Below are positions 806 through 63,952 of a stretch of DNA of 64,000 bases, piece after piece (position 1 is the first letter of the stretch; the number at the start of each line of letters is the position of its first letter). The notes beneath the pieces are model-generated. The model did no database searches. It saw nothing but the letters and a program-made list of their open reading frames with translations, and was not told where the DNA came from. The DNA is from Sialis fuliginosa (Eukaryota > Arthropoda > Insecta > Megaloptera > Sialidae), in the NCBI GenBank assembly GCA_961205875.1, contig OY540820.1, positions 4,650,001-4,714,000 of the forward strand, read 5' to 3'. Both the position numbers and the translations under genes were made by a program.

Positions 806-1071
806 TAGGGTGACCAGGTCTCCGGTTGTGACCCGGAGTCTCAGGGTTTGCATACTGGATCTCCGGGCTCAGGGTTTGGGTGTAATTTCTCCGGGTTTTG
901 CAAAAAATGACGACTAAAAAAAAAAGGTCGTCAAAAATAGAGCAGGGGACATAACAGTGCATATTATGGTAACAAATTTTATGAAAAAAAAAATAAAAAG
1001 AATAAAAAAAAAAAAAAAGGGGTCTTCATTTACATCTTAGGGTTTACCAAAACTAAAATCTGGTCACCCTA
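806..1071. mobile_element. hAT-type MITE, TAGGGTGACCAG family
   Basis: Terminal inverted repeats TAGGGTGACCAG and CTGGTCACCCTA bound a 266-bp non-coding element. It is flanked by a perfect 8-bp target duplication CCCATGGC (798-805 and 1072-1079), the hAT signature. A second copy lies at 46980-47266 and a partial one starts near 17954. Confidence 0.85.
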
Positions 1072-1168
1072 CCCATGGCAGATATTTTTTGTTAAAAATA
1101 CATTTGAAAATCTTACCCCTGACCACACTATTAGTTCTTTGTTAGTGAAAAGATTATTTATTTTAGAA

Positions 1169-3013
1169 ATGGCGCCAAAAAAAGATTATACGCCAGAGCA
1201 AATGCGCAAGGCAATAGAAGAGGTAAGCAAAGGAGTAAAAATTGGAACAGCAGCAAGAAAATATGGCGTACCAAGAGTCACTCTACGAAATAAAATAACT
1301 GGCAGAAGTCCTGTCGAGTGCAGTATGGGACCACCTACCATCTTAACAAAGTATGAAGAGGATATTCTTGTTCAATGGTTGCTCGCATTTAACGATAGGC
1401 ATTTTGTCATAGATAAAGAACAATTACTTAACAGCGTACAACAAATAATTATAAACACTAAAAGACCCAATCCTTTCACTGACAATAGACCGGGTAAAAA
1501 ATGGTACCAATCGTTTTTGAAGAGACACCCTGAATTATCTAAAAGAGCTGCTAAAAACGTAACCACTTCCAGGGAACATGTAACTGAAGATCAAATCAGA
1601 TCGTGGTTTACAGAAATAGATGAATATCTCGAAGAGAAAAATCTGAAACATATTTTAAATGAGCCAGAAAGAATTTTTAATACAGATGAAAATGCATTTT
1701 GCCTTAATCCAAAGGCGGACTGCGTTCTTGTAAAAAGAAATGATTATTCTACGGAAGAGGGGGAAAAGCAAACAGTGCTTATTACAGCTAACGCAGCTGG
1801 ACAGCTTTTACCGCCTATGATTGTGTTCTCTTATAACCTTATTCCGGAACACATATCAAATAGTGTGCCCGACACGTGGGGTATCGGTAAATCAGAAAAT
1901 GGTTGGATTTGTAGAAGCACTTTCTATGAATACATCACTAATATATTCTACCCTTGGCTGATTAAAAATAAAATAACCTTACCGGTTATATTTTTTCTCG
2001 ACGGCCACGGATCCCATATAACCGCACATTTGTCTGAATTCTGTGCGAGTCACGGTATAGAAGTTATCGCTCTTTATCCGAACAGTACACATCTTCTTCA
2101 ACCGATGGACGTAGCTGTTTTTAGACCTCTACAAATATTCTGGAGATTGCAGGTCACAAAATGGAAAACAGAGCATTTGGGGGAACAAGTGAAAACTGAA
2201 AATTTTGCCCCCATTTTTAAACTAGCCCTTGAAGATTTAAGCCAAGAGTGCGTAAGAAATGGATTCAAAGCTGGTGGGTTATTTCCGTTTGGACCTCAGT
2301 ACATTGATTTTTCTGAAATAAACACGCGAAATCGAGAAATAGATAAGCTGAAATATAAAGAGTTTTTTGAGGAACTGCAATCTGAAATTGTTAAATCTTT
2401 TTCTCAAGAGAAATTGGATTTGTTTAATAAATTGTATTATTTAAACTGCGCAGATATGGACAAAGAATTACCTGACGAAGATACTTCTCTTTACATAATA
2501 TGGACTAAATATAAAAATTTATGTCAAGATGCGGTTGATTACAATCATCAGAATTATTCAGTTTCTCAAGACAAAAAAATCAAAACTGAATCTAGTCAAG
2601 CCCAGACAGATGAAAATGCCATAGAGAATGATTTTAATAACGAGCCATGTTTTGCGATTGATAAAAGTGATTCTACGATAACAAAGACAAATGAAATAAG
2701 TGAATATCAACAAGTTATTAATTGTCAATTATCGGAAACGCAAAGGTCTATAAGTTTAAATTTTGAACAGGAAGGAACGTCGGTTCCACATTTAAACCCG
2801 ATACCTTCTACATCGTTCGATGGTATGGTTATACCGACTCCTTTTGAAAAAGCCCTTTTTTGGCCAGAGCCAGAAAAGAAGAAAAGTAAAATTTTAAAAG
2901 AAAAAGTGCCTTCGGTCATCACGAGTAAAGCTTGGAGAGAATTTTATAAACAGAAGAATTGTGCAAAAATCTCACGGAAGAAGAAAAAGAAAAATGAAAC
3001 AAGGAAGGATTAA
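1169..3013 (+). CDS. pogo/Tigger-type DDD transposase, intact ORF
   Basis: A 614-aa protein of the pogo branch of Tc1/mariner transposases. Residues about 5-50 form a psq-type helix-turn-helix, 60-135 a CENP-B-type DNA-binding domain and about 165-380 the DDE-type catalytic domain. The likely catalytic acids are D173 (in NTDEN), D278 (in FFLDGHGSH) and D314 (in LLQPMDV); all are present and the last two are 36 residues apart. The C-terminal third is low-complexity and ends in a lysine-rich tail. The start is the ATG at 1169 in 'agaaATGGCG'; the frame is open further upstream but only to a TTG. No interrupting stop or frameshift is seen. I could not find terminal inverted repeats around it, so it may be a recently active transposon, one whose ends are lost, or a domesticated host gene. 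Small MITEs flank it on both sides. Confidence 0.88.
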   Translation: MAPKKDYTPEQMRKAIEEVSKGVKIGTAARKYGVPRVTLRNKITGRSPVECSMGPPTILTKYEEDILVQWLLAFNDRHFVIDKEQLLNSVQQIIINTKRPNPFTDNRPGKKWYQSFLKRHPELSKRAAKNVTTSREHVTEDQIRSWFTEIDEYLEEKNLKHILNEPERIFNTDENAFCLNPKADCVLVKRNDYSTEEGEKQTVLITANAAGQLLPPMIVFSYNLIPEHISNSVPDTWGIGKSENGWICRSTFYEYITNIFYPWLIKNKITLPVIFFLDGHGSHITAHLSEFCASHGIEVIALYPNSTHLLQPMDVAVFRPLQIFWRLQVTKWKTEHLGEQVKTENFAPIFKLALEDLSQECVRNGFKAGGLFPFGPQYIDFSEINTRNREIDKLKYKEFFEELQSEIVKSFSQEKLDLFNKLYYLNCADMDKELPDEDTSLYIIWTKYKNLCQDAVDYNHQNYSVSQDKKIKTESSQAQTDENAIENDFNNEPCFAIDKSDSTITKTNEISEYQQVINCQLSETQRSISLNFEQEGTSVPHLNPIPSTSFDGMVIPTPFEKALFWPEPEKKKSKILKEKVPSVITSKAWREFYKQKNCAKISRKKKKKNETRKD

Positions 3014-3716: not shown

Positions 3717-3725
3717 CTACTATAT

Positions 3726-4248
3726 CAAGGTATATAAAGACAAGGTAGTCTCAACAATTCCTTGACCAATCAGCGTTGGCGCGGGAATTGACGTCACCTG
3801 GGGGATCTATTCAAATGTCATAAATTTTTAATAGAATATTAATTACAAAAAATCCTTTATTTATTCTTGTTTTCGTATTTTTTGATATTTTAACAACACA
3901 TACAATCAAATAAGTACAAATTCGACATAGCAAAATCATAAAGTGCTGTCAGAATCATATAACGTATTGCCAACTTAAGAATAGTAAAAATGATACTTCC
4001 TGAATTGACCAAATTGTCTTTGACAGCTTTTTTATGATTTTACAATGTCGAATTTGTACTTATTTGATTGTATGTTTTGTTAAAATATCAAAAAATACGA
4101 AAACAAGAATAAATAAAGAAATTTTGAGTAATTAATATTCTATTAAAAATTTATGACATTTGAATAGATCCCCCAGGTGACGTCAATTCCCGCGCCAACG
4201 CTGATTGGTCAAGGAATTGTTGAGACTACCTTGTCTTTATATACCTTG
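3726..4248. mobile_element. Foldback element with CRE/CCAAT/TATA termini, copy 1
   Basis: A 523-bp element with long inverted arms (about 3726-3949 and 4031-4248) beginning CAAGGTATATAAAG and ending CTTTATATACCTTG. It is flanked by a perfect 9-bp duplication CTACTATAT (3717-3725 and 4249-4257); a 9-bp TSD is typical of Mutator-like elements, but no transposase is present to confirm this. Each arm carries TGACGTCA (3789-3796 and 4178-4185), a CCAAT box and a TATA-like motif. The same interior is found in copies 3 and 4 (56954 and 48325). Confidence 0.88.
4178..4243 (+). promoter_or_regulatory. Outward promoter-like module in the foldback terminus
   Basis: Reading outward through the right arm: CRE TGACGTCA at 4178-4185, an E2F-like TTCCCGCG directly after, a CCAAT box on the reverse strand (ATTGG, 4204-4208) and TTTATATA at 4236-4243. 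The element ends at 4248, so transcription starting 25-30 bp past the TATA would begin in host flank. The left arm carries the mirror image on the minus strand. Motifs are seen directly; promoter activity is inference. Confidence 0.5.
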
Positions 4249-4257
4249 CTACTATAT

Positions 4258-5109: not shown

Positions 5110-8100
5110 GTAATGAAAAACATTGTTAAATCATATTGAGTAATCAAAGTAATATAAAATATACCTATATAATATTATATATTAAACACACTAGTTGTTT
5201 AAAATAGATGATATAGATTTACAGTAAATAAAGGCATTGAAAGTAAAAAATAATAATTTTTTACTTTCAATGATAGAGGTTATTTGTTGGTCGGTAAAGT
5301 AGGCACTGTTTGTCATTGCCACGTAAGCGTAAATATAAAATTAAAAAACAGCGGCTCCAAAACAATTGTATTAAATATAATATTTATTTTAACCTTTAGA
5401 GGACGGGGATTTTTGCGTTGAAATCGATCTTTTTATTTATACAAAATTTATACATGAAATCAATTAATTTCTCACGTGGCCTGCCCGATCAAGTTGCCGA
5501 TCGATATATCGACCAGTCCCGTCCGCAACGGAAAGTTCACTGTAAAAAATTCAGTTTGACGATTTGAAGGGAGTTTTCCTACGTAATTTGATGCGCTGAA
5601 TACGAAAAAGTCTTGGAGGCAAACTTGACCTTGAAAATCGCATTTCAAAGTCAAATTTATAGTTGTTGCTATTTAAGCTTCAAAATTGGTGAACCCACGT
5701 TTTTTGATGCGTTGAGTATGGAAAAAATATTCATATGGGTCACAAATGTAAGCCTCGGTTTCGAAAAAAACGGGTTGCCACCTGGAGAGTGAGCGATGAA
5801 CGACGAGGCCCACAGGCGCCCTGTTATGCGGGGTTTTCAAATATATACAACGCGGAGGGTTCTTTACGACTATTCGTGTGAGTAATGTATGTCTTGATGT
5901 ATTTCAACAAATAATAATAATAATAATAGTAATAATAACAATAGTAAATCTTCCACAAGAAAGAAACAACCAAGTGCTAACCTGCTGGTAGGAACTAACG
6001 ATAATTTCAATTTTCGGCCTTATATTCACCTTGAAGACGATTTTTGCGAGATGTAATACTGTTTTTTTCATGTTCAGTGCATCATAAAAAAATAGGTATG
6101 CTAACTGTCAGGCCGAAATAGCCAAAACAAAGTTGACCTTAAAATGCGATTTTCAAGATAAAGGGTGCCTCCTGAATCTGTTTTACTATTTTTTTTCGTA
6201 TTCAGCGCATCAAAATACGTAGGAAAACATCGAATATTTTTTTGTCCTATGGGTGGTCGATATTTCGACCACTCCCGTCCTTAAAAGGTTAATTACATAA
6301 ATAAATACCGGGGGGTCATCCAATACTGTACCGGTGCATATTTAAGTAAAAATAAATGGGGTTATTTCATTTTGAAAATGTCGTCAACTATTTATTACAC
6401 ACCTTTTTTCGGGTCCATACTATTGATTTTATAATGTGCTTTTTTATTATAGTTATAATATAAAAAATTAGAATACTATCTCTACATTTGTTTTTATACA
6501 TATTTAGCATCCAGAAACAATTGTCAATACTTTTGAACGGTTAAGATTTGCTTTATAAACCTATTTGAACCTCTCGAAGTCATAATATTGTTATTGTGCT
6601 CTGACATCCCTTTTATACGGCCCTTAAAATGAAGTCTTGTGCGATTTAAGTAGAAATCGGTGATTTCAAATAATAAGTGTACCTACCTCATAAATTTCAT
6701 AGCATTTACATTATTTATTACTACTGCTAGAATCCCTAGCAAATTCATAACGATTTTGCACCTCACAGCTAATTAACTTTTGAAAATTTATATATATATT
6801 ATATATATTTATAGAATGGTTCTATTACCTGTTTGCAATATTGAATGTATATGTTATCAATTATGGTTTTACAGGAAGACTTGGAAGATAAAGAAGAAAA
6901 CCTGACAGATACCGACAATGTGAAAAAAGAAAATGAAGACGAAAGTAAAGAAACAAAAGAAAATTTAAATTCAATTAACTGTATGTCAGAAAACCAGAGC
7001 GAGAATTTAAAAAAATATAAATGTTATCTTTGTAATAAATATTTTAAACTGAGAGGTAATTTATTACAGCATATATTAATACATACGAATCGACGATCAT
7101 TTAAATGTGATCAATGTGAAAGCAGTTTTGGAAAAAAAAGTACTTTAAATACACATAAATTAACACATTCTAATAAACGACCTTTTAAATGCGATCAATG
7201 TGATTTCAGTTCTAAAAGTAAATGTAGTTTGAATAGACATAAATTAACGCATTCTACTAATAAACACCGACCTTTTAAATGCAGTCAGTGTGAATATAGA
7301 GGTTCAACAAAATGGAATTTAAATGCACATACAGTAACACATTCTAAAAAACGACCTTTTAAATGCGACCAGTGTAAGTTATGTTTTCCACAAAAAGGTA
7401 ATTTGACTTCACATAAACGAATACATTCTAATTTAAGACCTTTTAAATGCGATCAGTGTCAATTTACTTGTAAACATAAATGTTATTTGAATACACATAA
7501 ACTAACACATACTAAAAAACTACCTTTTAAATGCGACCAATGTAAGTTATGTTTTGCACAAAAATGTAATTTGACTAGACATAAAGTAACACATACTAAT
7601 TTAAGACCTTTTAAATGCGACCAATGTAAGTCATGTTTTGCACAAAAATGTAATTTGACTGTACATAAACTAATACATACTAATTTAAGACCTTTTAAAT
7701 GCGATCAATGTATGTCACGTTTTGCACAAAAAAGTAATTTAATTAGACATAAATTAATACATACTAATTTAAGACCTTTTAAATGCAGTCAGTGTAAATA
7801 TAGGTGTGTAACAAAACGTTATTTAAATTCACATACATTAACACATTCTAAAAAACGACCTTTTAAATGCAACCAATGTAAGTTACGTTTTGCACAAAAA
7901 AGTAATTTGACTGCACATAAACTAACACATACTAATTCAAGACCTTTTAAATGCGACCAATGTAAGTTATGTTATGCATATAAAACTAGTTTGACTAGAC
8001 ATAAACTAACACATACTAATTTAAGACCTTTTAAATGCGACCAATGTAAGTTATGTTATGCACATAAAGGTGCTTTGACTAGACATAAACTAACACATAC

Positions 8101-8212
8101 TAATTTAAAACCTTTTAAATGCGATCAGTGCGGCCACAGTTTTGGACGAAAAGATCATTTGAAGCAACATAGAGTACGTTTACACAGCGCTGTTATTCCG
8201 GTTTTACTGTGA
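5005..8212 (+). CDS. C2H2 zinc-finger protein 1 (two exons, 14 fingers)
   Basis: Exons 5005-5109 and 6875-8212, joined in phase 0, give 480 aa. Exon 1 (35 aa) starts MYHVKQE and ends KQEQQ before the donor GTAATG. Exon 2 follows acceptor TTTTACAG. An acidic, lysine-rich leader up to about residue 90 precedes 14 consecutive C2H2 fingers of the form FKCDQC-x12-H-x3-H, joined by TNLRP/SNKRP-type TGEKP-like linkers; the linker between fingers 3 and 4 is two residues longer. Such arrays bind DNA in the nucleus, so a sequence-specific transcription regulator is the likely role. Fingers 7-9 and 11-13 are near-identical, suggesting recent internal duplication. An AATAAA at 8360-8365 may end the transcript. 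Exon 2 is certain; exon 1 is supported by the paralogous gene at 44334, which has the same split. No closer orthologue is recognised. Confidence 0.88.
5393..6288. mobile_element. piggyBac-type non-autonomous element
   Basis: An 896-bp element inserted in intron 1 of zinc-finger gene 1. Its ends are CCTTTAGAGGACGGG and CCCGTCCTTAAAAGG, each flanked by TTAA (5389-5392 and 6289-6292), the target duplication and CCYT ends typical of piggyBac. Subterminal 'cgatatatcgacc' near each end is also repeated in inverse. No transposase is seen. It explains much of why this intron (1,765 bp) is longer than its counterpart in gene 2 (459 bp). Confidence 0.85.
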
Positions 8213-38461: not shown

Positions 38462-38913
38462 CAAGATATATAAAGATAAGGTAGTCTCAGTAGCTCCTTG
38501 ACCAATCAGCATTTGCGCGGGAATTACGTCACCACGGGGATGTATTCAAATGTTATAAATGTATAATAAATACAGTAAAAATAGATTTTACGAACATTTA
38601 TCAACAAAAATTGGTATATATAATGATTGATACCTATTACTTTTAAAAAATCGATGAGTGTAGTCGACCAAGAGATGCAAGGGGTGAAAGGGGTGAAAAA
38701 CTTCAAAATAGCAACTGCACTCATCGGTTTCTTAAAGTCTAGGTACCAATGTATCTCTATACCAATTTTCGTTGATTAATGTTCGAAAATCTACTTTTAC
38801 TGTACTTGTTATACATTTATAACATTTAAATATATCCCTTGGGTGACGTAATTCCCGTGTAAATGCTGATTGGTCAAGGAGCTATTGAGACTACCTTGTC
38901 TTTACATATTTTG
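38462..38913. mobile_element. Foldback element with CRE/CCAAT/TATA termini, copy 2
   Basis: A 452-bp palindrome-like element starting CAAGATATATAAAGATAAGG and ending CCTTGTCTTTACATATTTTG. CCAAT boxes are kept and CRE half-changes are present (ACGTCAC on the left, TGACGTAA on the right). Flanks ATAAAAAAC and ATTAAAAAT agree at seven of nine. Only the outer ~125 bp match copy 1; the interior is a different inverted repeat. Confidence 0.82.
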
Positions 38914-40588: not shown

Positions 40589-41635
40589 AAGGGTGTAATG
40601 AACAATTTTTTTTTTATTTCGGAATGACATTTGGAGATCAAGTCCTGCTTGATGTAAAACTAACGTATACCAAAAATCAGTTCATTCGGTCATCTACAGG
40701 ATGTTTTATAAGCAAAATTGTATAATAAAAAATAACCAAGAACAAACTACCTACATTTTTCAAAATATGAAATAAAATCTATTAAGAAAGTTTGAATTTT
40801 AGAGCATTAAAAAAATTAACACTTTCAATAAATTAAGTAGATATTTTATTGTGAAGTGAATTATTGTTTTTATTGTATCGTTCGAATAGGCATGATGCCA
40901 GTAACAAAGTATCACTGAAATTATGATTTTAAATAATGAAATAAGTTAAAAAGATTCTAAGAAATGAATTTATTTTTATATTAAAAGCGAGATTAATATG
41001 ATTTTTGTTAAAATAAAAACGCAAAATACAGCAATCCGCCATGTTTGATATAATGACGTCACGGCTACGTAAACGTAATTTTTGTTTAATTAATATCTGC
41101 ACTGTTTATAAATTATTTTGTGGATTTAATTTATCAATTTGCTCAGTATTGTGTTACCAAAAGTAAAACCGAGAAACATTAGCGATGAAACAAGGATTTA
41201 TTATAGTTGACAAGGAGTGTTTACATAGACGTGACGTCAAAAATGCGCCATGACACCTGCGCGCGTTTTGGCGTCAAATTCAAAATTAGTTTTAAAAGGG
41301 TCAATTTTTGTGATCAAACTTTTATTTTCTGCAGAAATAAGCATTTTTTTTTTTGAAATAACAGACACGTAAGATTGGTAAGATCATCATAAAATAGTTT
41401 TTAAAAATTAGGCATCATTCATGCCTATTAAAATGCAATTTATTTAATTTGTTTCATTTCAATTTTTTAAAAGTTATTTCTGTTTGGTACGACGTGCCAA
41501 AATTACATTTTAAACAACTTTTCTTAGTAATATGTAGTAAATGCTTATAAAACACCCTGTAGAAGATCAAATGGACTTATTTTTGGTATACATTAGTTTT
41601 CCGAAATTTCAAATTTTTTTTGTTCATTACACCTA
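40589..41635. mobile_element. Foldback element with AGGGTGTAATGAACAA ends
   Basis: Imperfect inverted arms run from AGGGTGTAATGAACAA to TTGTTCATTACACCT and include GTATACCAAAAATCAGTTCA / GACTTATTTTTGGTATAC and 'acaggatgttttataagca' mirrored. The interior has TGACGTCA at 41054-41061 and 41231-41238. Non-coding, about 1.05 kb. Confidence 0.7.
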
Positions 41636-44594: not shown

Positions 44595-46088
44595 GTAATG
44601 AAAAACATTGTTAATATTGAATAATCAAATATATAGTATACTTAGTTGCTATACAATAAAATAATAAGTGTTAATTAAAATTAAAAGATAAAGGTAGGTA
44701 TCGCTCTGTTTGACATATGTCGCGCATGCGTAAATGTAAAAGTAAAAAATTACAGTGTCTCTAAAACAATTTTTATTTTATAAAATTAGCATTCATGTCA
44801 CAACGATAGACAATATTTATAATTAGTGCAGTCGTAGCAGGGGGGGGGGGGGGAGGGGGGCACAATTGGGCATAAGTCTTAAAGTTAATGATGTAAGCTA
44901 TATTTAAAAAAGTAGAGTTTGTAGAATCGCGCCAAGCTGATATATTAACAATTCAACTTATTCGTTAATCTGTCAATTTTAATTTGTTAATAATAGGGAA
45001 AGGTGGTTCCGACGGTCTTAGGGTAATAATAGTTATCAAATGTCGTTTTGCAGGGAGACGTAGAAGTTAAACAAGAAAATCTAACAGACACCTACAATCA
45101 AAATGTGAAAACAGAAAATGAAGACTTCAGTGAAGAAACAAAATATAGTGATATTTTTTTAAATTCAAGTAATGAAAATAAAACTAATCATAAAAATAAA
45201 ACATCTAAAATAAAATTAGCTCATTCTAATAACCTACCTTTTAAATGTGACCAATGTGAATATACTTGCAGACAAAAAGTTAGTTTGAATAAACATAAAT
45301 TAATACATTCTAATAAACGACCTTTTAAATGCGACCAATGTGAATTCAGTTATAGAGACAATGGAACTTTGAAAAGGCATAAATTATCACATTCTAACCA
45401 ACGACCTTTTAAATGCGACCAGTGTGAATTTAATTGTAATCAAAAAACTACTTTGAATAAACATAAATTAAGACATTCTAATAAGCGACCTTTTAAATGC
45501 GACCACTGTGAATATAGTAGCAGAGACAGAGGAACTTTGAATAGACATAAATTAACACATTCTAACCAACGACCTTTTAAATGCGACCAATGTGAGTATA
45601 ATTGTAAACAAAAAGGTATGTTGAATAGACATAAATTAAAACATATTTTTGTACGGCTTTTTGAATGCGATCAGTGTGAATACAATTGTAGACAAGAAAG
45701 TAATTTGATTAGACATAAATTAAAACATTCTAATCCACGACCTTTTAAATGCGACCAGTGTGAATATAGTAGCAAAGACAAAGGTATGTTGAATAGACAT
45801 AAATTAACACATACTAATATTCGACCTTTTAAATGTGACCAATGTGAATTTAGTTTTGGAGTAAAAAGCCATTTGAAAACTCATAAATTAATTCATTCTA
45901 ACCAACGGCCTTTTAAATGCGACCAATGTGAATTTAGCTGTAGACAAAAAGGTAACCTGAATAAACATAAATTAAAACATTCTAATGAACGACCTTTCAA
46001 ATGCGAACTATGCGATTATAGTTTTAAACTAAAAGGTACTTTGAATAAACATAAATTAACACATTTTAATAAATTACCTTTTAAATGA
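44334..46088 (+). CDS. C2H2 zinc-finger protein 2 (two exons, 10 fingers)
   Basis: Exons 44334-44594 and 45054-46088 join in phase 0 to 431 aa. Exon 1 begins MFHVKQE, holds three to four KQE-centred repeats of about 28-30 residues and ends KQEYQ before donor GTAATG. Exon 2, after acceptor GTTTTGCAG, begins GDVEVKQENLTDTY and, after an acidic leader, carries ten C2H2 fingers of the FKCDQCEF/Y type with SNxRP linkers. The linker after finger 5 is worn (IFVRL). Same split, same intron phase and similar leader as the gene at 5005, so the two are paralogues. A nuclear DNA-binding role is inferred from the array. The last finger's linker ends NKLPFK at TGA, where a Cys codon is expected. Confidence 0.88.
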
Positions 46089-48324: not shown

Positions 48325-48489
48325 TTAAAATATCAAAAAATATGAAAACAAGAATAAATAAAAGATTTTTTTGTAATTGATATTCTATTATACGTTTATA
48401 GCATTTAAATACATCTCCCAAGTGACGTCATTCCCCCGCGACCGCTGATTGGTCAAGGAGCTGATGAGACTACCTTGTCTTTATATACC
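48325..48489. mobile_element. Foldback element, half copy (copy 4)
   Basis: Only the right arm of the CRE/CCAAT/TATA family is present, from 'gttaaaatatcaaaaaata' to 'tgtctttatataccg'. It keeps TGACGTCA, GATTGG and TTTATATA. A short CTATGTCTATG-ended fragment follows (about 48496-48535). Confidence 0.75.
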
Positions 48490-48539
48490 GTGTTCTATGT
48501 CTATGAGTAGAATATTATGTCCATTATGTCTATGGTAGA

Positions 48540-55400: not shown

Positions 55401-58400
55401 GATGTTGTAAATGGCAGTCAAATAGTGAGTGTTGTTATTGTTGCATGCTAGTGTTTTTGTTATTTATATATCGTTATTTACATGTCACCGGTGTACAAGC
55501 AAAACACATGAGTACACCATTCTATAGAATTTGTTCCACTCTATCGAAGATTCATTTCAACAAAGTCATATAATTTTCCTTAACATCAAATCTATTATAA
55601 CGTTATCTAAATCTGTAATAACACATTTTATGCAGAAAAAATACAACATACATCAATTCAATGTCTCTTTTTACGCGGTAGATACGTTCCATAACAAATC
55701 GCATATAAAAAACCGATTAAAAAAAGATATTGCTTACATTGTAATTTTTTTTTTTTTGTGACAATTCGTATTCTGTCAACTATATAGAATAACCTTACTT
55801 TTAATTTTTTCTTTAGTTTCTTTCTGGCACAGTTATAAATCTTTTTCCAGGAGTTTTGTAAGTTGAATTATTACAACAAGGTACGAAATAATATTTATAA
55901 CTTATTATTTTTCGTTCGTTTTCCATGTTTATCGTTGACACTTGTATATTTAAGCATTGACTGACATTTAAATTTTGGTTTATGACGTCACGTAACATGG
56001 CGCGCAATATTAAGTATGTACCTTTTTTTAAGTTTGATATTTTGGGGTCGGGATAAACTTTTGGAGTATGAAAAAATGTTCTACAATGTTTTTTTATCTC
56101 TAGATTACATTGAATAGATTTTTAGGGATTTTCATTTTTTACCGGATTACTCTATTGCAGTGGCGTAGATAGGGGGGGGGGGATCAAGGAGATCAATCCC
56201 CCCCCCCCATGAGTCTACTTCATGAGAAAACTCAAATAGATTTTTTTAACTCAGACATTTTTTTAAACTCTTCTAGTATGAACAAAATCAACTTTTTTTA
56301 AATGCAATAGTTAGTACGAAAAGAGTAATAGAATTTTATTTTCAGCTTTTTCGTCGGTTTTAAAAAGGCAAATTAATTTTTTTTAACGTTTTTTTATATT
56401 TTTTTATTATACATACATGAAATGTACTGTATAATAAAGTATAGTAATCATGAAAAAATCGAACTCGAGATTTTAACGGAATTACACGTATTGAGGGTCC
56501 CTGAACCAAAAATATGAGATTAAATATTAAGTCATATCCCCCCCCCCCCCCCCCCAGCAAAAAGCTATCTACAACACTGTTAAATTGTCAGTTGTCATTA
56601 GATACTTCACTCGTAAGTTTTGTAAATTAAACATTCCAGTGCATTCATTGAATATTTAAAAAAAATGAAAATACAATATTATGAAAAATCAAGGTTTTTT
56701 TTGACTTACTGTGTTTTGCTTGTATTCTGATAAGTATATATTGCTTTTGTTACTTAATGAGAAATATATTGTCATCAATATCAATTATTGTGTACTTGGA
56801 AAATATTACTGTTTTGCTTTTTTTGGTATGATTTCAGTACATAATAATACTTTTTTCATCTAATTATATTGTTAAAAATTTAATTTTTAAAATTACATTT
56901 ATTGTCGCTCCAATGTTAACAAATTCTATGTTACAAGAAACATAGGGCACCCACAAGGTATATAAAGACAAAGTAGTCTCATTTGGTCCTTGACCAATCA
57001 GCGTTGGCGTGGGAATTGTCGTCACTAGGAAGATGTTTTCAAATGCTATAAGTGTATAATAGAACAAGCTTGTCCAACCCGCGGCCCGCGAGGATAATTA
57101 CAAAAATAATAAACCTGCATTGAAATTAGCGCGACTAAAAAAAAAGGTGTTCAGTTTTTATTTTTCCTAAAAAACCTTTTGTATTCCATAAAATTAGGAA
57201 TTGAACTTAATGCGACAAAAAAAAGGTGTTCAGTTTTTTTATTTTTGTATATTCTGGTCTGCGGTCCTTAGTTTAGTTTTGGGTTTATGCTAAGCAGCGC
57301 AGAAGGTTCAAAAGGTTGGACACCTATGTAATAGAATATCAATTATGTACAAAAAAAATCCTTTATTTATTCTTGTTTTCGTATTTTTTTTTATATTTTA
57401 ACAACACATACAATCAAATAAGTACAAATTCGACATTGCAAAATCATAAAAAAAGCTGTCACAGACAATTTGGTCTATTCGGGAAGCATCATTTTTACTC
57501 TTCTTATGTTGACAATACGTTCTGTGAGTCTGACAACGAGTAAATGATGGAATTTGTATAATTGATATTCTATTATACATTGGTTACGTTCACGACTGAC
57601 CAAAAACAGTAAACAACGAGCTTTGATTAGTTGATTTATGGAATTTCTGGTGGATTGTACCAGAAATTTAAAGAATGTCATTATTTAAGCGTGTAAGGAA
57701 GTGAGACAGAAGTCAACATGAAGTGAACATAAAAGTTCTTTGGTTAGCCTGGTCATTAGTTTCTATCTCTTTCTAATCACTTCTTTCTCACTTCCTTACA
57801 CGCTTAAAAAATGGCATTCTTTAAATTTCTGGTACATTCCATCAGAAATTCCATGAATCAACCAATCAAATCTCGTTGTTCACTGTTTTTGGTCAGTCGT
57901 GAACGTGACCATTTATAACATTTGAATATATCCCCCTAGTGACGTCAATTCCTGCGCCAACGCTGATTGGCCAAGGACCAAATGAGACTATCTTGTCTTT
58001 ATGTACACAGGTAGAAAAGTGACTTGGGCCAAGAAAATCTTGTTTTATATATAACGAAAACAATATTTTCTCAATATAAGAATGTATTCTTAATCCAAGT
58101 ATATTATTAGTTTCGTCCAACAATATTTCTTTAAAGAGAAACAACAATTTTCTGGATTAAGAATATATTCTTAAATTAAGAAAATATTGTTTTTGTTATA
58201 TAAAAAACAAGGATTTCTTGACCCAAGTCAACTTTTTTACCAGTGTACCTGTACCTGGTGTAACAGGTTGGTAACTTCTGTAAAATCGCTTATTTCAAAA
58301 ATTGAAAACTGATTTTTAGTAAATAAACATACATATCTATTGTAGTAGATCTACATTTTTGGGTACTATTACTACAATCAGAGTGATCTGATTACTGAAC

Positions 58401-61400: not shown

Positions 61401-63952
61401 AACACGTATTAACAAATCTCCGAACGCCTTCGTTAAACATATAGTAAAATGTGGAAGGAACCGCACAGTCGCGACTCTTGTCTTCTCCTCTTTTCAGCGT
61501 GGGCTTTGCTGTTTTCCAGGATTCTCTAATCCAAGCACTGCGTCGAGAAAGGGAAAAATACCCAAACCATTATTGGCGGGTGTGAGCTCGGCAGCTGCCG
61601 GCCAGTTCGGTGTCCTGCAGGGTTTCCGCCGTGAACCGTCGCCAGGTGNNNNNNNNNNNNNNNNNNNNNNNNNNNNNNNNNNNNNNNNNNNNNNNNNNNN
61701 NNNNNNNNNNNNNNNNNNNNNNNNNNNNNNNNNNNNNNNNNNNNNNNNNNNNNNNNNNNNNNNNNNNNNNNNNNNNNNNNNNNNNNNNNNNNNNNNNNNN
61801 NNNNNNNNNNNNNNNNNNNNNNNNNNNNNNNNNNNNNNNNNNNNNNNNTTCTAATTACATTTTATTGACTAAGATTGTGTTGAAACGTTGCTGTGTTAAC
61901 CATGAAAATTAAATACCGAGTAAATCAATGATTCTTAGATAGAGGTTACACGATCAGTTTGGTATCAGTTCATTCCATGACTGATACCAAACATTGATTG
62001 ACAGACTGATGAACTGGACTGAACTGATACCAGACTGATCGTGTAACCTCTGTTCTAAGGTTAATGTGGCGACTTTTCAACGTGTGTCAACAGCATTCAA
62101 CAATAGAGTAATCCGGAAAATTTTAACATACCTTTTTTATTACTTAACTGCAAAGCTAAAACATAATTTTCGTACGTTTTCCATGTTCATCGTTGCATCT
62201 TGAATCTTGTATATTTAAGCGTTGACTGACATTTCAATACTGGATTATGACGTCACGCAACATGACGCATAATTGGGAGCGTTTGAAAAGTACCTTTTTT
62301 TAAATATGATATTTTGGGGTCGGGATAAACTTTTGGAGTATGAAACAATGTTCTACAATGTTTTTTTTATATCTAGATTACATTAAACATGTTTTTAGGG
62401 GTTTTCATTTTTGACCGGATTACTCTATTATACTTTTTGGACATAGTTCTTTTTCATAAAGTTCAACTCAAGACCTTTTGATTTATGTATAATAAAATTC
62501 TCATATCTTTTTTATACGAAAGTTACGATTTAACGCACAAAAAAAATTTCAGTAGAGAAAATTTTGTGTTCCTTTTTTGTTTGATATGTTGAGTATTACA
62601 AGATTTGTGATTTTCTTATCTACATATTCATTTAGATATAGAAACAAATGAAAATACTAGCTTATGTTACCCCACATGTGGGTTTTACATAGTGCCGTGT
62701 TTAAGGGTTGATATTGGTCTAAATATTTGTAGATATACACTACCCTGCAAAAGTTTAAGACCACCTTAAAAATTTTTCCTTTTTTGACTTTTGCGAATAT
62801 TTCTCGGTCTCTGACCGCTATATTCAACGTGTTTGTATTTACCGATAATAAAATATGTTCTTCGCCCGATAACTGGACGGTCGGTTAGTTACCCGGCGCT
62901 CACATGTATTTCAAATTGTCTCAGCTTTGCCATAGTGACAATTTCTCTTTCCCTAAAATTAGTGAATATATTATATATTTATAATACCTATTGTCATGTT
63001 ACTTACCTTGTGTTTCGATTTTCTGCACCGACAATTGCAGTGTTTTCGCATTTCAAATGACCTAACCTCAATATTGTTAGATCCCCAAAATAATCTTTTG
63101 ATGAAATGAAGAAAGCACAGCAAATTTCGAAGGAAAAACGAGCTTAAGTAGTCATTTTGAATAAATTGGGTCATTCACAGCGAAAAATTACTGAGACGAA
63201 TTGAATAAACTGGTCAAAAATATTACAGGGTGTCCACTTTCTGGAAAGTCAGAGAAGCCTAAAGTGGTTAGGGAAAGTCAGGGAATTCATTAATTTTTTT
63301 TAGAAAGTCGGGGAAAAAGGTCCATAAAATTAAGTTGACGAGCAAAAAAAAAAAGAAAAAGGACATTGAATTGAAAGTAAGTAACAAATGTAAAAGTTTC
63401 AAGTTATGACCAAAAAAAAAAAAATATCTTCAAATTTTATTTCTGCACATTCTTGCCCTGAGTCAGGGAATTTTGAATCTGTGGTCGGGGAAAAGTCAGG
63501 GAATTTTATTTCCAAAAACCGGTGGACACCCTGTATTAGCAAAAAGTCCAAAAATCGACATTTTTTCAGGTGGTCTTAAACTTTTGCAGGGTAGTGTACT
63601 AATGAATTAAATACCAAACAGGCTAGACGATTCGCCATCATCGAGTCGTAAACAAGCTGATATCAGTAGCAGCGGTGAGTCGAGCAAGAGGGCATCACCG
63701 GCGAGATCTCTTATACCCCCGCCACGTAAGGTTGGTGAATACAATCGGTTGGGTGGGAAACCACGGGCCGATCGAGACTCAGCGTCTACCGCGAGCGATA
63801 ACTCGGCCAGTTCTTTACCGCCGCCTTCGTCGTCTAGCAAACTCCGCATGTACGGCACTTCGACCGGTGTCTCGAGTTTAACAAGACGCGGCTCTTCGCT
63901 AGGACGAGATGCTAAAACTGGACAGACGACGAAATATCGAATTCAGTTTTAG
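49403..63952 (+). CDS. AMOT: Angiomotin orthologue, 12 coding exons
   Basis: Exons: 49403-49481, 49844-50093, 50153-50354, 51021-51452, 51827-52100, 52582-52727, 52791-53125, 53185-53319, 53770-53984, 54323-54516, 61520-61581, 63622-63952. All phases agree, giving 884 aa (vertebrate motins range about 675-1,084). Residues about 1-300 are Ser/Asn-rich and include RQEPQGQE, which is also in human AMOT. From about 295 to 640 is the motin coiled coil: IVDILIHENN, EKRERLERTARMRLQ, LTNAQGNVVRLEEECRKKQ, EKIMRLEGECAKWEQRYLEES and ERDAMIRVLQKH all have clear AMOT counterparts. The C-terminal ~200 residues are Ser/Pro-rich and end YRIQF, a possible class II PDZ ligand. Motins bind membranes, junction proteins and actin and regulate YAP in Hippo signalling. 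No PPxY or LPxY motif is visible. The start ATG 49403 is the first in frame; untranslated exons may lie upstream. Confidence 0.9.
49502..49748 (-). repeat. CTTCCTCGCAATATCG-type repeat, reversed, in intron 1
   Basis: Reverse copy of the dispersed repeat ('ggttggatggttgggtctgg', GTCT tract, 'cttcctcgcaatatca'), filling most of angiomotin intron 1 (49482-49843). Confidence 0.65.
49844..50354 (+). CDS. AMOT: Angiomotin exons 2 and 3
   Basis: Exon 2 (49844-50093) and exon 3 (50153-50354) are separated by a 59-bp intron. They encode the Ser-rich N-terminal part with RQEPQGQENL. Human AMOT has its LPxY motif soon after this point; here the sequence continues QQSVSNRSSLKESLPSNRSS without one. Confidence 0.85.
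50499..50999 (+). mobile_element. AGGTACTGG MITE, copy 7, in angiomotin intron 3
   Basis: Left-truncated copy beginning 'gattaaatgtactgaattag' and ending ACTGGTGCCAGTAACT. It fills most of the 666-bp intron and stops 21 bp before exon 4. Confidence 0.85.
51021..51452 (+). CDS. AMOT: Angiomotin exon 4, entry to the coiled coil
   Basis: Acceptor TTTGAATACAG, donor AAG|GTATTT. The last third (IWQSNEIVDILIHENNTLKL, then EIDNCQQKVAKSQK) matches the start of the motin coiled coil. Earlier residues are basic and Ser-rich, with YRRGASAP a possible kinase site. Confidence 0.88.
51496..51785. mobile_element. MITE with CAGGGTGTCCACTTTCTGG ends, in intron 4
   Basis: Ends CAGGGTGTCTACTTTCTGG and CCAGTGGACACCCTG, with a 5-bp target duplication GTGTT (51491-51495 and 51786-51790). 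It makes up most of the 374-bp intron. A 5-bp TSD with CAGGG ends suggests a hAT5-type element. The other copy is at 63226-63533. Confidence 0.85.
51827..53984 (+). CDS. AMOT: Angiomotin exons 5-9, conserved coiled-coil core
   Basis: Exons 51827-52100, 52582-52727, 52791-53125, 53185-53319 and 53770-53984 encode residues about 322-689. This is the motin coiled-coil homology and Angiomotin_C region, the part that binds lipids and partners and that identifies the gene. Heptad-rich sequence ends after MIRVLQKH; beyond it the chain turns Ser/Thr/His-rich (SPHHTPHASLHS). Confidence 0.92.
52187..52228 (+). repeat. AGGTACTGG MITE fragment, right end only
   Basis: 'gtaaaccttgctcttatagt' through ACTGGTGCCAGTACCT, in angiomotin intron 5. 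Confidence 0.7.
54323..54516 (+). CDS. AMOT: Angiomotin exon 10
   Basis: Encodes a Ser/Tyr-rich segment (SNSYAGSDSSYHTSYSKYG) and a short helix LDDQLKELDNQLDNHQLLNK, ending in phase 0 at donor GTAAGT. A 7-kb intron follows. Confidence 0.85.
54517..56158. other. Angiomotin intron 10, proximal part
   Basis: AT-rich, no gene. About 55800-56158 is a diverged relative of the element at 62103-62430 ('ggggtcgggataaactttt', 'ccggattactctatt') and includes 'atgacgtcacgtaacatgg'. Confidence 0.45.
56159..56578. mobile_element. CAGTGGCGTAGATAG element, worn copy
   Basis: Ends CAGTGGCGTAGATAGGG and CTATCTACAACACTG, with long G and C homopolymers (about 56174-56182, 56199-56208 and a C run near 56528-56546). 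Flanks do not match, so no target duplication is claimed. Confidence 0.65.
57065..57328. mobile_element. hAT MITE with CAAGCTTGTCCAACC ends
   Basis: Ends CAAGCTTGTCCAACCCGCGG and GGTTGGACACCTATG, with a perfect 8-bp target duplication TAATAGAA (57057-57064 and 57329-57336). Two internal stretches of 'aaaaaggtgttcagttttt' are tandemly related. Confidence 0.87.
57582..57910. mobile_element. Harbinger-like MITE with GGTTACGTTCACGACTGACC ends
   Basis: Long inverted arms from GGTTACGTTCACGACTGACC to GGTCAGTCGTGAACGTGACC, flanked by ATT on both sides. Removing element plus one ATT restores the sequence seen in the sister copies of the host element, so the 3-bp duplication is well supported. Confidence 0.82.
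58006..58245. mobile_element. TA-flanked palindromic MITE with CACAGGTAGAAAAGTGACTT ends
   Basis: A 240-bp foldback with ends CACAGGTAGAAAAGTGACTT and AAGTCAACTTTTTTACCAGTG between TA dinucleotides (58004-58005 and 58246-58247). Confidence 0.8.
58517..58932. mobile_element. MITE with GGACTCCTATAAGTTCGAA ends
   Basis: Inverted ends AGTTGGACTCCTATAAGTTC and GAACTTATAGGAGTTCTACT around ~400 bp of non-coding sequence. The left end includes GTTCGAATTCC, which resembles a Pol III B box, but no tRNA fold is seen. Confidence 0.65.
59074..59850. mobile_element. Foldback element with GGGTCAATCCATATGAA ends
   Basis: Arms of about 150 bp, from GGGTCAATCCATATGAAGTG to GACCATTTCGTATGGATTAACCC, mirror each other (including 'taccctaacatgttggtagt'). 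Non-coding. Confidence 0.78.
59851..60805. other. Intron spacer
   Basis: Very AT-rich, with no recognised gene, RNA or element. Confidence 0.35.
60808..61307 (+). mobile_element. AGGTACTGG MITE, copy 8
   Basis: Ends AGGTAGTGGCACCAGT and 'attggtgcctttacct' between TA dinucleotides; the interior has a few small deletions relative to copy 6. It lies about 210 bp before angiomotin exon 11. Confidence 0.87.
61520..61581 (+). CDS. AMOT: Angiomotin exon 11 (62 nt)
   Basis: Acceptor GCTGTTTTCCAG; encodes DSLIQALRREREKYPNHYWR plus two bases of a valine codon. Using donor GTGAGC at 61582 it leaves in phase 2, which is exactly what exon 12 needs. Read through, it would stop three bases later, giving a short YWRV ending. 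Phase-0 entry from exon 10 fits. Confidence 0.75.
61586..61648. other. GC-rich segment abutting the assembly gap
   Basis: About 63 bp of unusually GC-rich sequence right up to the run of N. It could be the start of a GC-rich block that failed to assemble. An open frame runs through it (GVSSAAAGQFGVLQG), but no exon boundary supports coding. Confidence 0.4.
61649..61848. other. Assembly gap, 200 N
   Basis: Exactly 200 unknown bases in angiomotin intron 11; the round length suggests an arbitrary gap size. Phase consistency of exons 11 and 12 makes a lost coding exon here unnecessary but not impossible. Confidence 0.95.
61932..62058. repeat. 127-bp hairpin
   Basis: Arms from TAGATAGAGGTTACACGATC to GATCGTGTAACCTCTGTTCTA with internal 'ctgataccaaac' repeats. 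Probably a tiny MITE; a small-RNA hairpin is possible but there is no evidence for one. Confidence 0.7.
62103..62430. mobile_element. MITE with AGAGTAATCCGG ends
   Basis: Ends ATAGAGTAATCCGGAAAA and TTGACCGGATTACTCTAT; the interior has 'attatgacgtcacgcaacat' and 'ggggtcgggataaactttt', shared with about 55900-56158. Non-coding. Confidence 0.72.
62738..63596 (+). mobile_element. Tc1-like element with CACTACCCTGCAAAAG ends
   Basis: Ends CACTACCCTGCAAAAGTTTA and TAAACTTTTGCAGGGTAGTG between TA dinucleotides (62736-62737 and 63597-63598). At about 63106-63200 the + strand spells a worn N-terminal HTH of a Tc1-like transposase (KEKRA, stop, VVILNKLGHSQRKITET). The rest is deleted, and a 308-bp MITE is inserted at 63226-63533. 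Confidence 0.83.
63226..63533. mobile_element. MITE with CAGGGTGTCCACTTTCTGG ends, nested in the Tc1-like element
   Basis: Ends CAGGGTGTCCACTTTCTGG and CCGGTGGACACCCTG with a perfect 5-bp target duplication TATTA (63221-63225 and 63534-63538). Same family as 51496-51785. Confidence 0.88.
63622..63952 (+). CDS. AMOT: Angiomotin exon 12, C-terminus
   Basis: Enters in phase 2 after 'accaaacag' and encodes 110 Ser/Pro/Arg-rich residues (SLIPPPRKVGEYNRLGGK, DNSASSLPPPSSSSKLRMYG), ending KYRIQF before TAG. GC-richer than its surroundings, as the other exons are. Human AMOT also ends in a hydrophobic PDZ ligand (EYLI). The sequence itself is too unlike vertebrate motins to prove the link; strand, phase and position support it. 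Confidence 0.75.

What the first reader, a model, noticed from the sequence alone, without database searches (positions are those of the whole stretch)
3726..4248. Foldback transposon whose termini look like outward-facing Pol II promoters (CRE, CCAAT, TATA)
Both arms carry, in the order expected for a promoter reading out of the element, TGACGTCA, an E2F-like TTCCCGCG, a CCAAT box and TATATA, within about 70 bp of the end. The CCAAT box is kept in all four copies of the window (also 38462, 48325, 56954). The CRE or TATA is kept in most arms even where the interior has been replaced. A mobile pair of promoters, one at each end and pointing into host DNA, could rewire neighbouring genes. The motifs are seen; conservation by function and promoter activity are inference, since terminal repeats are also conserved for transposition.
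Basis: partly seen in the sequence, partly recalled or inferred. Interest (0 to 1): 0.78.

Follow-up and report, generated by a model that had tools for sequence, protein, structure and literature searches.

The report
Foldback transposon with promoter-like ends
This is one copy of a very abundant, short, hairpin-shaped jumping element whose ends do carry promoter-like DNA words, but the TATA word fits its consensus better pointing into the element than out of it, so the idea that it carries promoters aimed at neighbouring genes is unproven.

Summary
The element is real and the coordinates exact: 523 bp at 3726-4248, inverted arms, 9-bp target duplication CTACTATAT; its arm word occurs 2,364 times in a 392-Mb genome. 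The motif cluster is beyond chance (0 of 20,000 single-base shuffles of the arm hold all four words). The outward-promoter reading is weak. (1) TATATA is a palindrome; with its flanks the box matches the fly TATA consensus 9/9 pointing INTO the element, 7/9 pointing out; of 139 arms, 103 score 9/9 inward, none outward. (2) CCAAT is the best-kept motif, but inside an invariant 19-bp block; CRE and E2F rank mid-table or lower among arm words, TATATA 28th of 102, and the CRE palindrome is lost in two of six subgroup consensuses. (3) TGACGTCA is a common word in this genome (16,213 sites; reversed word 4,311), much of it apparently in another repeat. Best reading: a non-autonomous foldback element, probably Mutator-like, whose arm joins transposition signals to an inherited, probably inward-acting, promoter region. 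Against this: no transposase partner was found, and the motif order suits an outward promoter. Promoter activity could not be tested.

The parts
3717..3725 (.). left copy of 9-bp target site duplication CTACTATAT
   Evidence: read; family-wide 9-bp duplications
3726..3942 (+). left arm of the foldback element (outer 107 or so bp shared by all six subgroups, inner part specific to this subgroup)
   Evidence: inverted repeats I1 and I2; arm alignment
3731..3736 (.). TATATA; with flanks GTATATAAA it matches STATAWAAR 9/9 reading into the element, 7/9 reading out
3766..3770 (+). CCAAT box (inside GACCAATCAGC)
   Evidence: conservation
3776..3787 (.). TTGGCGCGGGAA, E2F-like (TTCCCGCG on the minus strand at 3780-3787)
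   Evidence: label E2F is recalled, not from a call
3789..3796 (.). TGACGTCA, CRE-like palindrome
   Evidence: label CRE is recalled
3943..4030 (.). loop between the arms
   Evidence: fold
4031..4248 (-). right arm (mirror of the left)
4178..4185 (.). TGACGTCA of the right arm
4187..4194 (+). TTCCCGCG of the right arm
4204..4208 (-). CCAAT box of the right arm (ATTGG on +)
4238..4243 (.). TATATA of the right arm
4249..4257 (.). right copy of target site duplication CTACTATAT
   Evidence: read
38462..38913 (.). second copy, other interior; imperfect duplication (7 of 9 by eye)
48325..48492 (-). single-arm remnant
56954..58006 (.). copy interrupted by two stretches that do not match the element (about 57065-57328 and 57582-57910)

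Best explanation
A non-autonomous foldback (MITE-like) DNA transposon of a large family. By its 9-bp target duplication and long foldback arms it is probably moved by a Mutator-like transposase. The outer 107 bp of each arm is the unit kept by all six subgroups seen: a terminal block, a CCAAT block, a GCGCGGGAAT block, an ACGTCAC block and a TATTCAAATG-TATAAAT stretch, separated by short variable spacers. I think this arm combines transposase recognition with the promoter region of the (unseen) autonomous element, which in Mutator elements lies inside the inverted repeat and reads inward. Shown: foldback anatomy, 9-bp duplications, abundance, block structure, inward fit of the TATA word. Inferred: Mutator kinship, transposase binding, inward promoter role. 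Any outward transcription would be incidental.
For: 9-bp duplications: 20 of 51 two-armed elements exact, 27 of 51 with 8 or 9 of 9 matching; permuted flanks give 0.64 per 51. 2,364 hits for an arm 18-mer at up to 2 mismatches, reversed control 13. Six subgroup consensuses differ at 18 of 107 positions (31, 32, 34, 35, 55, 66, 67, 75-77, 79, 80, 83, 84, 95, 96, 103, 105); the blocks between are invariant. Terminal TATA 9/9 inward, 7/9 outward; 103 of 139 arms are 9/9 inward, 0 of 139 outward; 10 of 3,543 background 18-bp stretches reach 9/9. Inner TTATAAATG stands downstream of CCAAT-E2F-CRE in the inward reading. A seemingly autonomous Mutator-like foldback element with a 9-bp duplication exists in the same genome. 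[quoted passage not shown]
Against: No autonomous partner was found: none of the 10 MULE loci fetched carries an arm by profile search within about 1.5 kb (blastn gave one 26-bp, 88% scrap in L073); four of the 10 were also looked at further out, and the one with foldback arms has unrelated ends. The order of the motifs also suits an outward promoter. The terminal inward TATA has CCAAT, E2F and CRE downstream of it, which is unusual. The inner TATA scores only 7/9 on STATAWAAR and 5/9 in 36 of 139 arms. No initiator was recognised by eye. The TATA consensus is that of Drosophila melanogaster; the host here is unnamed.
Confidence: 0.58

Rival explanations
1. One reading: each end is a working promoter pointing into host DNA, kept by function, so that insertion can switch on neighbouring genes.
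For: CRE, E2F, CCAAT and TATATA stand in that order within 71 bp of each end; CCAAT would lie about 60 bp upstream of a start some 20 bp outside the element (worked out from a TATA-to-start distance of 30-31 bp, PMC4803293). CCAAT is the best-kept motif (11th of 103 5-mers; ACCAAT intact in 984 of 1,141 anchored arms genome-wide against 984 of 1,257 for the neighbouring TCCTTG). [quoted passage not shown]
Against: TATA fits inward better. CRE and E2F are no better kept than average arm words, and the CRE palindrome is lost in two of six subgroup consensuses. TATATA (28/102) is no better kept than the rest of its terminal block: rare changes 3.7% and 3.7% (part of that block was selected for by the 18-mer).
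Confidence: 0.13
2. The blocks are transposase-binding sequence only; the resemblance to CRE, E2F, CCAAT and TATA is chance plus selection of motifs after the fact.
For: The invariant blocks (28, 19, 10, 7, 10 bp) are mostly longer than the motifs inside them; the CRE word varies between subgroups. CAAGG recurs at element bases 1-5 and 16-20 and inverted as CCTTG at 35-39 (read), as binding-site repeats would.
Against: All four motifs in one arm: 0 of 20,000 shuffles. In the 43 arms not holding the exact 18-mer, A/T positions in motifs change less than A/T positions outside (20 of 794 against 66 of 1,379, Fisher p 0.008) and so do non-CpG G/C positions (19 of 428 against 48 of 623, p 0.039).
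Confidence: 0.25

Closest known systems
Maize MuDR/Mu1 terminal inverted repeats
   Same: Long inverted repeats, promoter-like motifs including cell-cycle type elements inside the repeat (PMC3310237, passages seen); an outward promoter at Mu1 (title in the reference list of PMC4287451); 9-bp duplications (recalled)
   Different: Here no gene inside the element, unrelated sequence, and no expression evidence; the TATA word fits inward
Muta1 of Aedes aegypti (type-2 foldback MULE)
   Same: Foldback, TIRs over 100 bp, 8-9-bp duplications, hundreds of non-autonomous derivatives (PMC5225508, passages seen)
   Different: Muta1 arms carry 12-bp subterminal tandem repeats; none were found in these arms, and no transposase was found
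Tm1 Mutator/foldback family of root-knot nematodes
   Same: Foldback ends, MITE-like members, 9-bp duplications (PMC3169594, abstract and passages seen)
   Different: Arms largely of 13-15-bp tandem repeats; unrelated end sequence
'Blurry' promoters of Tc1/mariner elements
   Same: Weak core-promoter motifs in transposon promoters (PMC6446368, start of abstract and passages seen)
   Different: Other superfamily; tested with a reporter gene, unlike this one; the passages seen do not speak of outward promoters
P-element / Galileo superfamily
   Same: Foldback forms and an AAGGT-GTC word near the end (recalled)
   Different: 9-bp, not 7-8-bp duplications (8 and 7 recalled); the one P-like locus examined shows no such arm in the flanks fetched

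Membership tests
Foldback / Mutator-like (MULE) elements | long inverted arms able to fold back | tested here: met
   arms 131 nt at 98% plus 95 nt at 95%; folded energy -348 against -91 kcal/mol for shuffles
Foldback / Mutator-like (MULE) elements | 8-10-bp, mostly 9-bp, target site duplication | tested here: met
   20 of 51 exact 9 bp, 27 of 51 with 8 or 9 of 9, 24 of 51 with 7 or fewer; control 0.64 of 51
Foldback / Mutator-like (MULE) elements | a family member that encodes a MULE transposase between the same ends | tested here: inconclusive
   10 PF10551 matches at E 0.001 or better, none with these arms by profile search within about 1.5 kb; wider flanks seen for 4 of 10 only
FB type-2 (tandem-repeat arms) | short tandem repeats make up the arm | tested here: not met
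   no direct-repeat family inside the element
P-element superfamily | 7-8-bp target duplication (recalled) | tested here: not met
   9-bp in 20 of the 21 elements with an exact duplication of 8 bp or more
P-element superfamily | P-type transposase between the same ends | tested here: inconclusive
   63 matches; flanks of 1 of 63 read in part, no arm
Elements with outward-reading promoters (Mu1 type) | transcripts that start at the element edge and run outward | not testable with these tools
   no expression data
   7/9 outward against 9/9 inward in the consensus; 0 of 139 arms reach 9/9 outward, 5 reach 8/9

The most novel reading that the evidence does not exclude
In this genome at least two unrelated, abundant non-autonomous repeats have each spread paired CRE octamers: this foldback family (CRE with CCAAT and E2F at both ends) and a second repeat with two TGACGTCA sites about 178 bp apart. 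Together they may make up much of a nearly fourfold excess of the site. If bound, they would form a transposon-dispersed CREB/ATF and cell-cycle regulatory network, with the foldback arms acting as two-way promoters or enhancers.
Probability: 0.1. Interest if true: 0.7.

Novelty: new member of a known kind. Interest (0 to 1): 0.3.

Why it matters
If the ends initiate transcription, a family whose arm word is counted 2,364 times could seed promoters across the genome; as it stands it is a well-defined foldback family for which I found no description in the held papers, and a caution that a palindromic TATATA does not give a direction. The excess of CRE octamers in repeats is a testable route by which transposons could disperse one regulatory site.

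Tried and rejected
MULE loci as the autonomous source: not borne out for the loci seen. P-element: tried because of a recalled likeness of the end; not supported. A 3.3-kb arm-to-arm element (L128) looked autonomous, but it is a foldback copy (9-bp duplication AGAAGAAGG) holding a nested Transib-like element with its own 5-bp duplication. Search of viral contigs for an arm pattern: 0 hits. Paper search for four end words: 0 papers. Paper searches listed 2 papers each, none read; one listed 8, two of them seen in passages. Clustering with 8 average-linkage groups was useless (131 of 139 in one group) and was replaced by six groups from diagnostic positions, which the word ranks use. Rows dropped: 190 raw arm hits; 172 after identical arms were counted once (which removes some young copies); 139 with model start at most 9 and end at least 104 used for the conservation counts. 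96 of the 139 hold the exact 18-mer by which many were found, so positions 13-30 are favoured; the 43 others are given separately.

Full report
The thing itself. The element spans 3726-4248 exactly as given: 523 bp, beginning CAAGGTATATAAAG and ending with its mirror. The outer arms are reported as 131 nt at 98% complementarity; an inner arm pair adds 95 nt at 95%, so nearly the whole element folds on itself (-348 kcal/mol against a shuffle mean of -91). It is flanked by CTACTATAT on both sides. Across 51 two-armed elements in the fetched loci, 20 have an exact 9-bp duplication and 27 match at 8 or 9 of 9, against 0.64 in permuted flanks; the other 24 match at 7 or fewer. Among the 27, the first base is never T and the last is a pyrimidine in 24.

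The family. The window lies in an unnamed 392-Mb genome. An 18-mer from the arm occurs 2,364 times with up to 2 mismatches (control 13). The subgroup of the window copy has 378 arms within 1 mismatch over 51 bp (control 0). The window itself holds 7 arms in 4 places. Of 71 two-armed cases in the window and loci (overlapping loci not deduplicated), 67 are 394-548 bp long; the others are 187, 664, 705 and 1,054.

Are the motifs real? Yes. All four are at both ends. In the 7 window arms: CCAAT 7, TATATA 5, TGACGTCA 4, TTCCCGCG 3. In 139 arms: CCAAT 125, TATATA near the end 115, CGCGGGAA 89, TGACGTCA 77; the whole ordered set with TGACGTCA in 46, and with the relaxed ACGTCA in 59. Shuffling the consensus arm 20,000 times base by base never gave all four and gave three or more once. 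The motifs were picked after the fact, which these figures do not correct for.

Are they conserved for themselves? I asked where each motif ranks among all words of equal length in the arm, scored against six subgroup consensuses: CCAAT 11 of 103, TATATA 28 of 102, TGACGTCA 47 of 100, E2F-like 10-mer 69 of 98. In the 43 arms that lack the exact 18-mer, ranks are 6, 27, 36 and 47. Subgroup consensuses differ at 3 of 35 motif positions and 15 of 72 others (Fisher p 0.17). Rare changes (alleles under 8%) run at 3.7% in TATA, 3.4% in the CCAAT region, 3.7% in E2F, 2.4% in CRE and 3.7% in the rest of the terminal block. Matched for base class and leaving out positions 13-30 from the non-motif side, motif positions are better kept in three of four comparisons: non-CpG G/C sites in all arms, 59 of 1,418 against 122 of 1,988, p 0.013; in the 43-arm set A/T sites, 20 of 794 against 66 of 1,379, p 0.008, and G/C sites, 19 of 428 against 48 of 623, p 0.039; but A/T sites in all arms, 70 of 2,575 against 137 of 4,444, p 0.42. 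CpG sites, nearly all of which lie in motifs, go the other way: 38 of 920 against 1 of 126. In the 43-arm set the CCAAT region stands out (A/T sites 1 of 215) and TATA does not (15 of 258). These counts lump sub-subgroups and related arms, so the p values are not strict. Genome-wide, with fixed anchors, ACCAAT is intact in 984 of 1,141 and the neighbouring TCCTTG in 984 of 1,257; ACCAAT has one fewer G/C base, which may explain part of the gap. So CCAAT shows a modest excess of conservation, TATA, CRE and E2F little or none, and the invariant blocks extend past the motifs.

Which way does it point? TATATA is its own reverse complement. With neighbours, the arm reads GTATATAAA inward, a perfect match to STATAWAAR (consensus seen in PMC4803293, one passage), while the best outward word is CTTTATATA, 7 of 9. 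Of 139 arms 103 score 9/9 inward and none does outward; 10 of 3,543 background 18-bp stretches score 9/9, whereas 7/9 or better is found in 656 of 3,543. A second TATA-like word (TTATAAATG, arm-alignment positions 95-103) lies downstream of CCAAT-E2F-CRE in the inward reading; it scores 7/9 in the consensus. Against this, a terminal inward TATA has its CCAAT, E2F and CRE downstream, which is unusual, and the order of the motifs does suit an outward promoter. Direction is therefore unsettled, with the TATA evidence favouring inward.

How special is the CRE? TGACGTCA occurs 10 times in the window against 0.44 expected, only 4 of them in these arms. Genome-wide it occurs 16,213 times against 4,311 for the reversed word. 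In the first 100 listed places (the first 1.0 Mb of C1), 26 of 99 successive spacings are 139-180 bp, 14 of them exactly 178; pairs at such spacing that I could read (window 41054 and 41232; L041; L043) are one other repeat, judged by eye. In the fetched loci, which were chosen for the arms, 58 of 69 sites lie in arms. The octamer is thus a common repeat word here.

What moves it? 9-bp duplications and foldback arms suggest the Mutator superfamily. The genome holds a seemingly autonomous Mutator-like foldback (C7: 482-aa open frame with a MULE domain, arms of about 1.5 kb at 97%, duplication TATTTTATT), but its ends, GGGTTGAGCACAACTC, are different. None of the 10 MULE loci shows these arms by profile search in the stretches seen; blastn at E 0.01 gave one 26-bp scrap in L073. 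A P-like locus gave nothing. Superfamily membership therefore stays an inference.

Comparison. Promoters within Mutator inverted repeats, including cell-cycle motifs, and an outward promoter at Mu1 are on record, and foldback Mutator-like elements with 9-bp duplications are known in mosquito and nematode. Searches of the held papers for the end sequence (0), for foldback elements with promoter activity in insects (2 listed, not read) and for MITEs with NF-Y and E2F sites (2 listed, not read) showed no description of this family; nothing outside that library was searched. I judge it a new member of a known kind. Names such as CRE, E2F and NF-Y are recalled labels for the words.

Noticed in passing
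L128 149-2960 (G000 C1, about 6459628-6462439): A Transib-like element nested in a foldback copy: ends CACAGTG/CACTGTG (identical to the V(D)J recombination heptamer, recalled), 5-bp duplication CAGCG, stop-to-stop frames of 291 and 461 aa; part of the 461-aa frame matches Pfam RAG1 weakly (E 0.003, below cut-off).
   Followed up: partly
G000 C7:18226900-18237600 (L129, L119, L071, L120, L130): Seemingly intact Mutator-like foldback element: 482-aa open frame with MULE domain, arms about 1.5 kb at 97% with 15-bp and about 107-bp tandem repeats, 9-bp duplication TATTTTATT.
   Followed up: partly
window 41054-41239: Member of another abundant repeat with two TGACGTCA sites 178 bp apart; the octamer is found 16,213 times in the genome against 4,311 for the reversed word.
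   Followed up: partly
window 55983 and 62248: Two copies (83% identical over 266 bp) of a further repeat that carries TGACGTCA.
   Followed up: no
G000: Seven P-like transposase matches with the same 907-aa open frame length and the same score on C1, C2 (two), C4, C5, C7 and C13, suggesting recent activity.
   Followed up: no
window 941-3013: 690-aa open frame that looks like a pogo/Tigger-type transposase (by eye; no family search run).
   Followed up: no
window 6845-8212 and 45033-46088: Two long C2H2 zinc-finger open frames of the same style (by eye).
   Followed up: no
window 61648-61847: 200 N in all, first and last at these positions, so a run of exactly 200 N, probably an assembly gap.
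   Followed up: no
target duplications of the foldback family: Weak symmetric preference: first base never T, last base C or T in 24 of 27.
   Followed up: no
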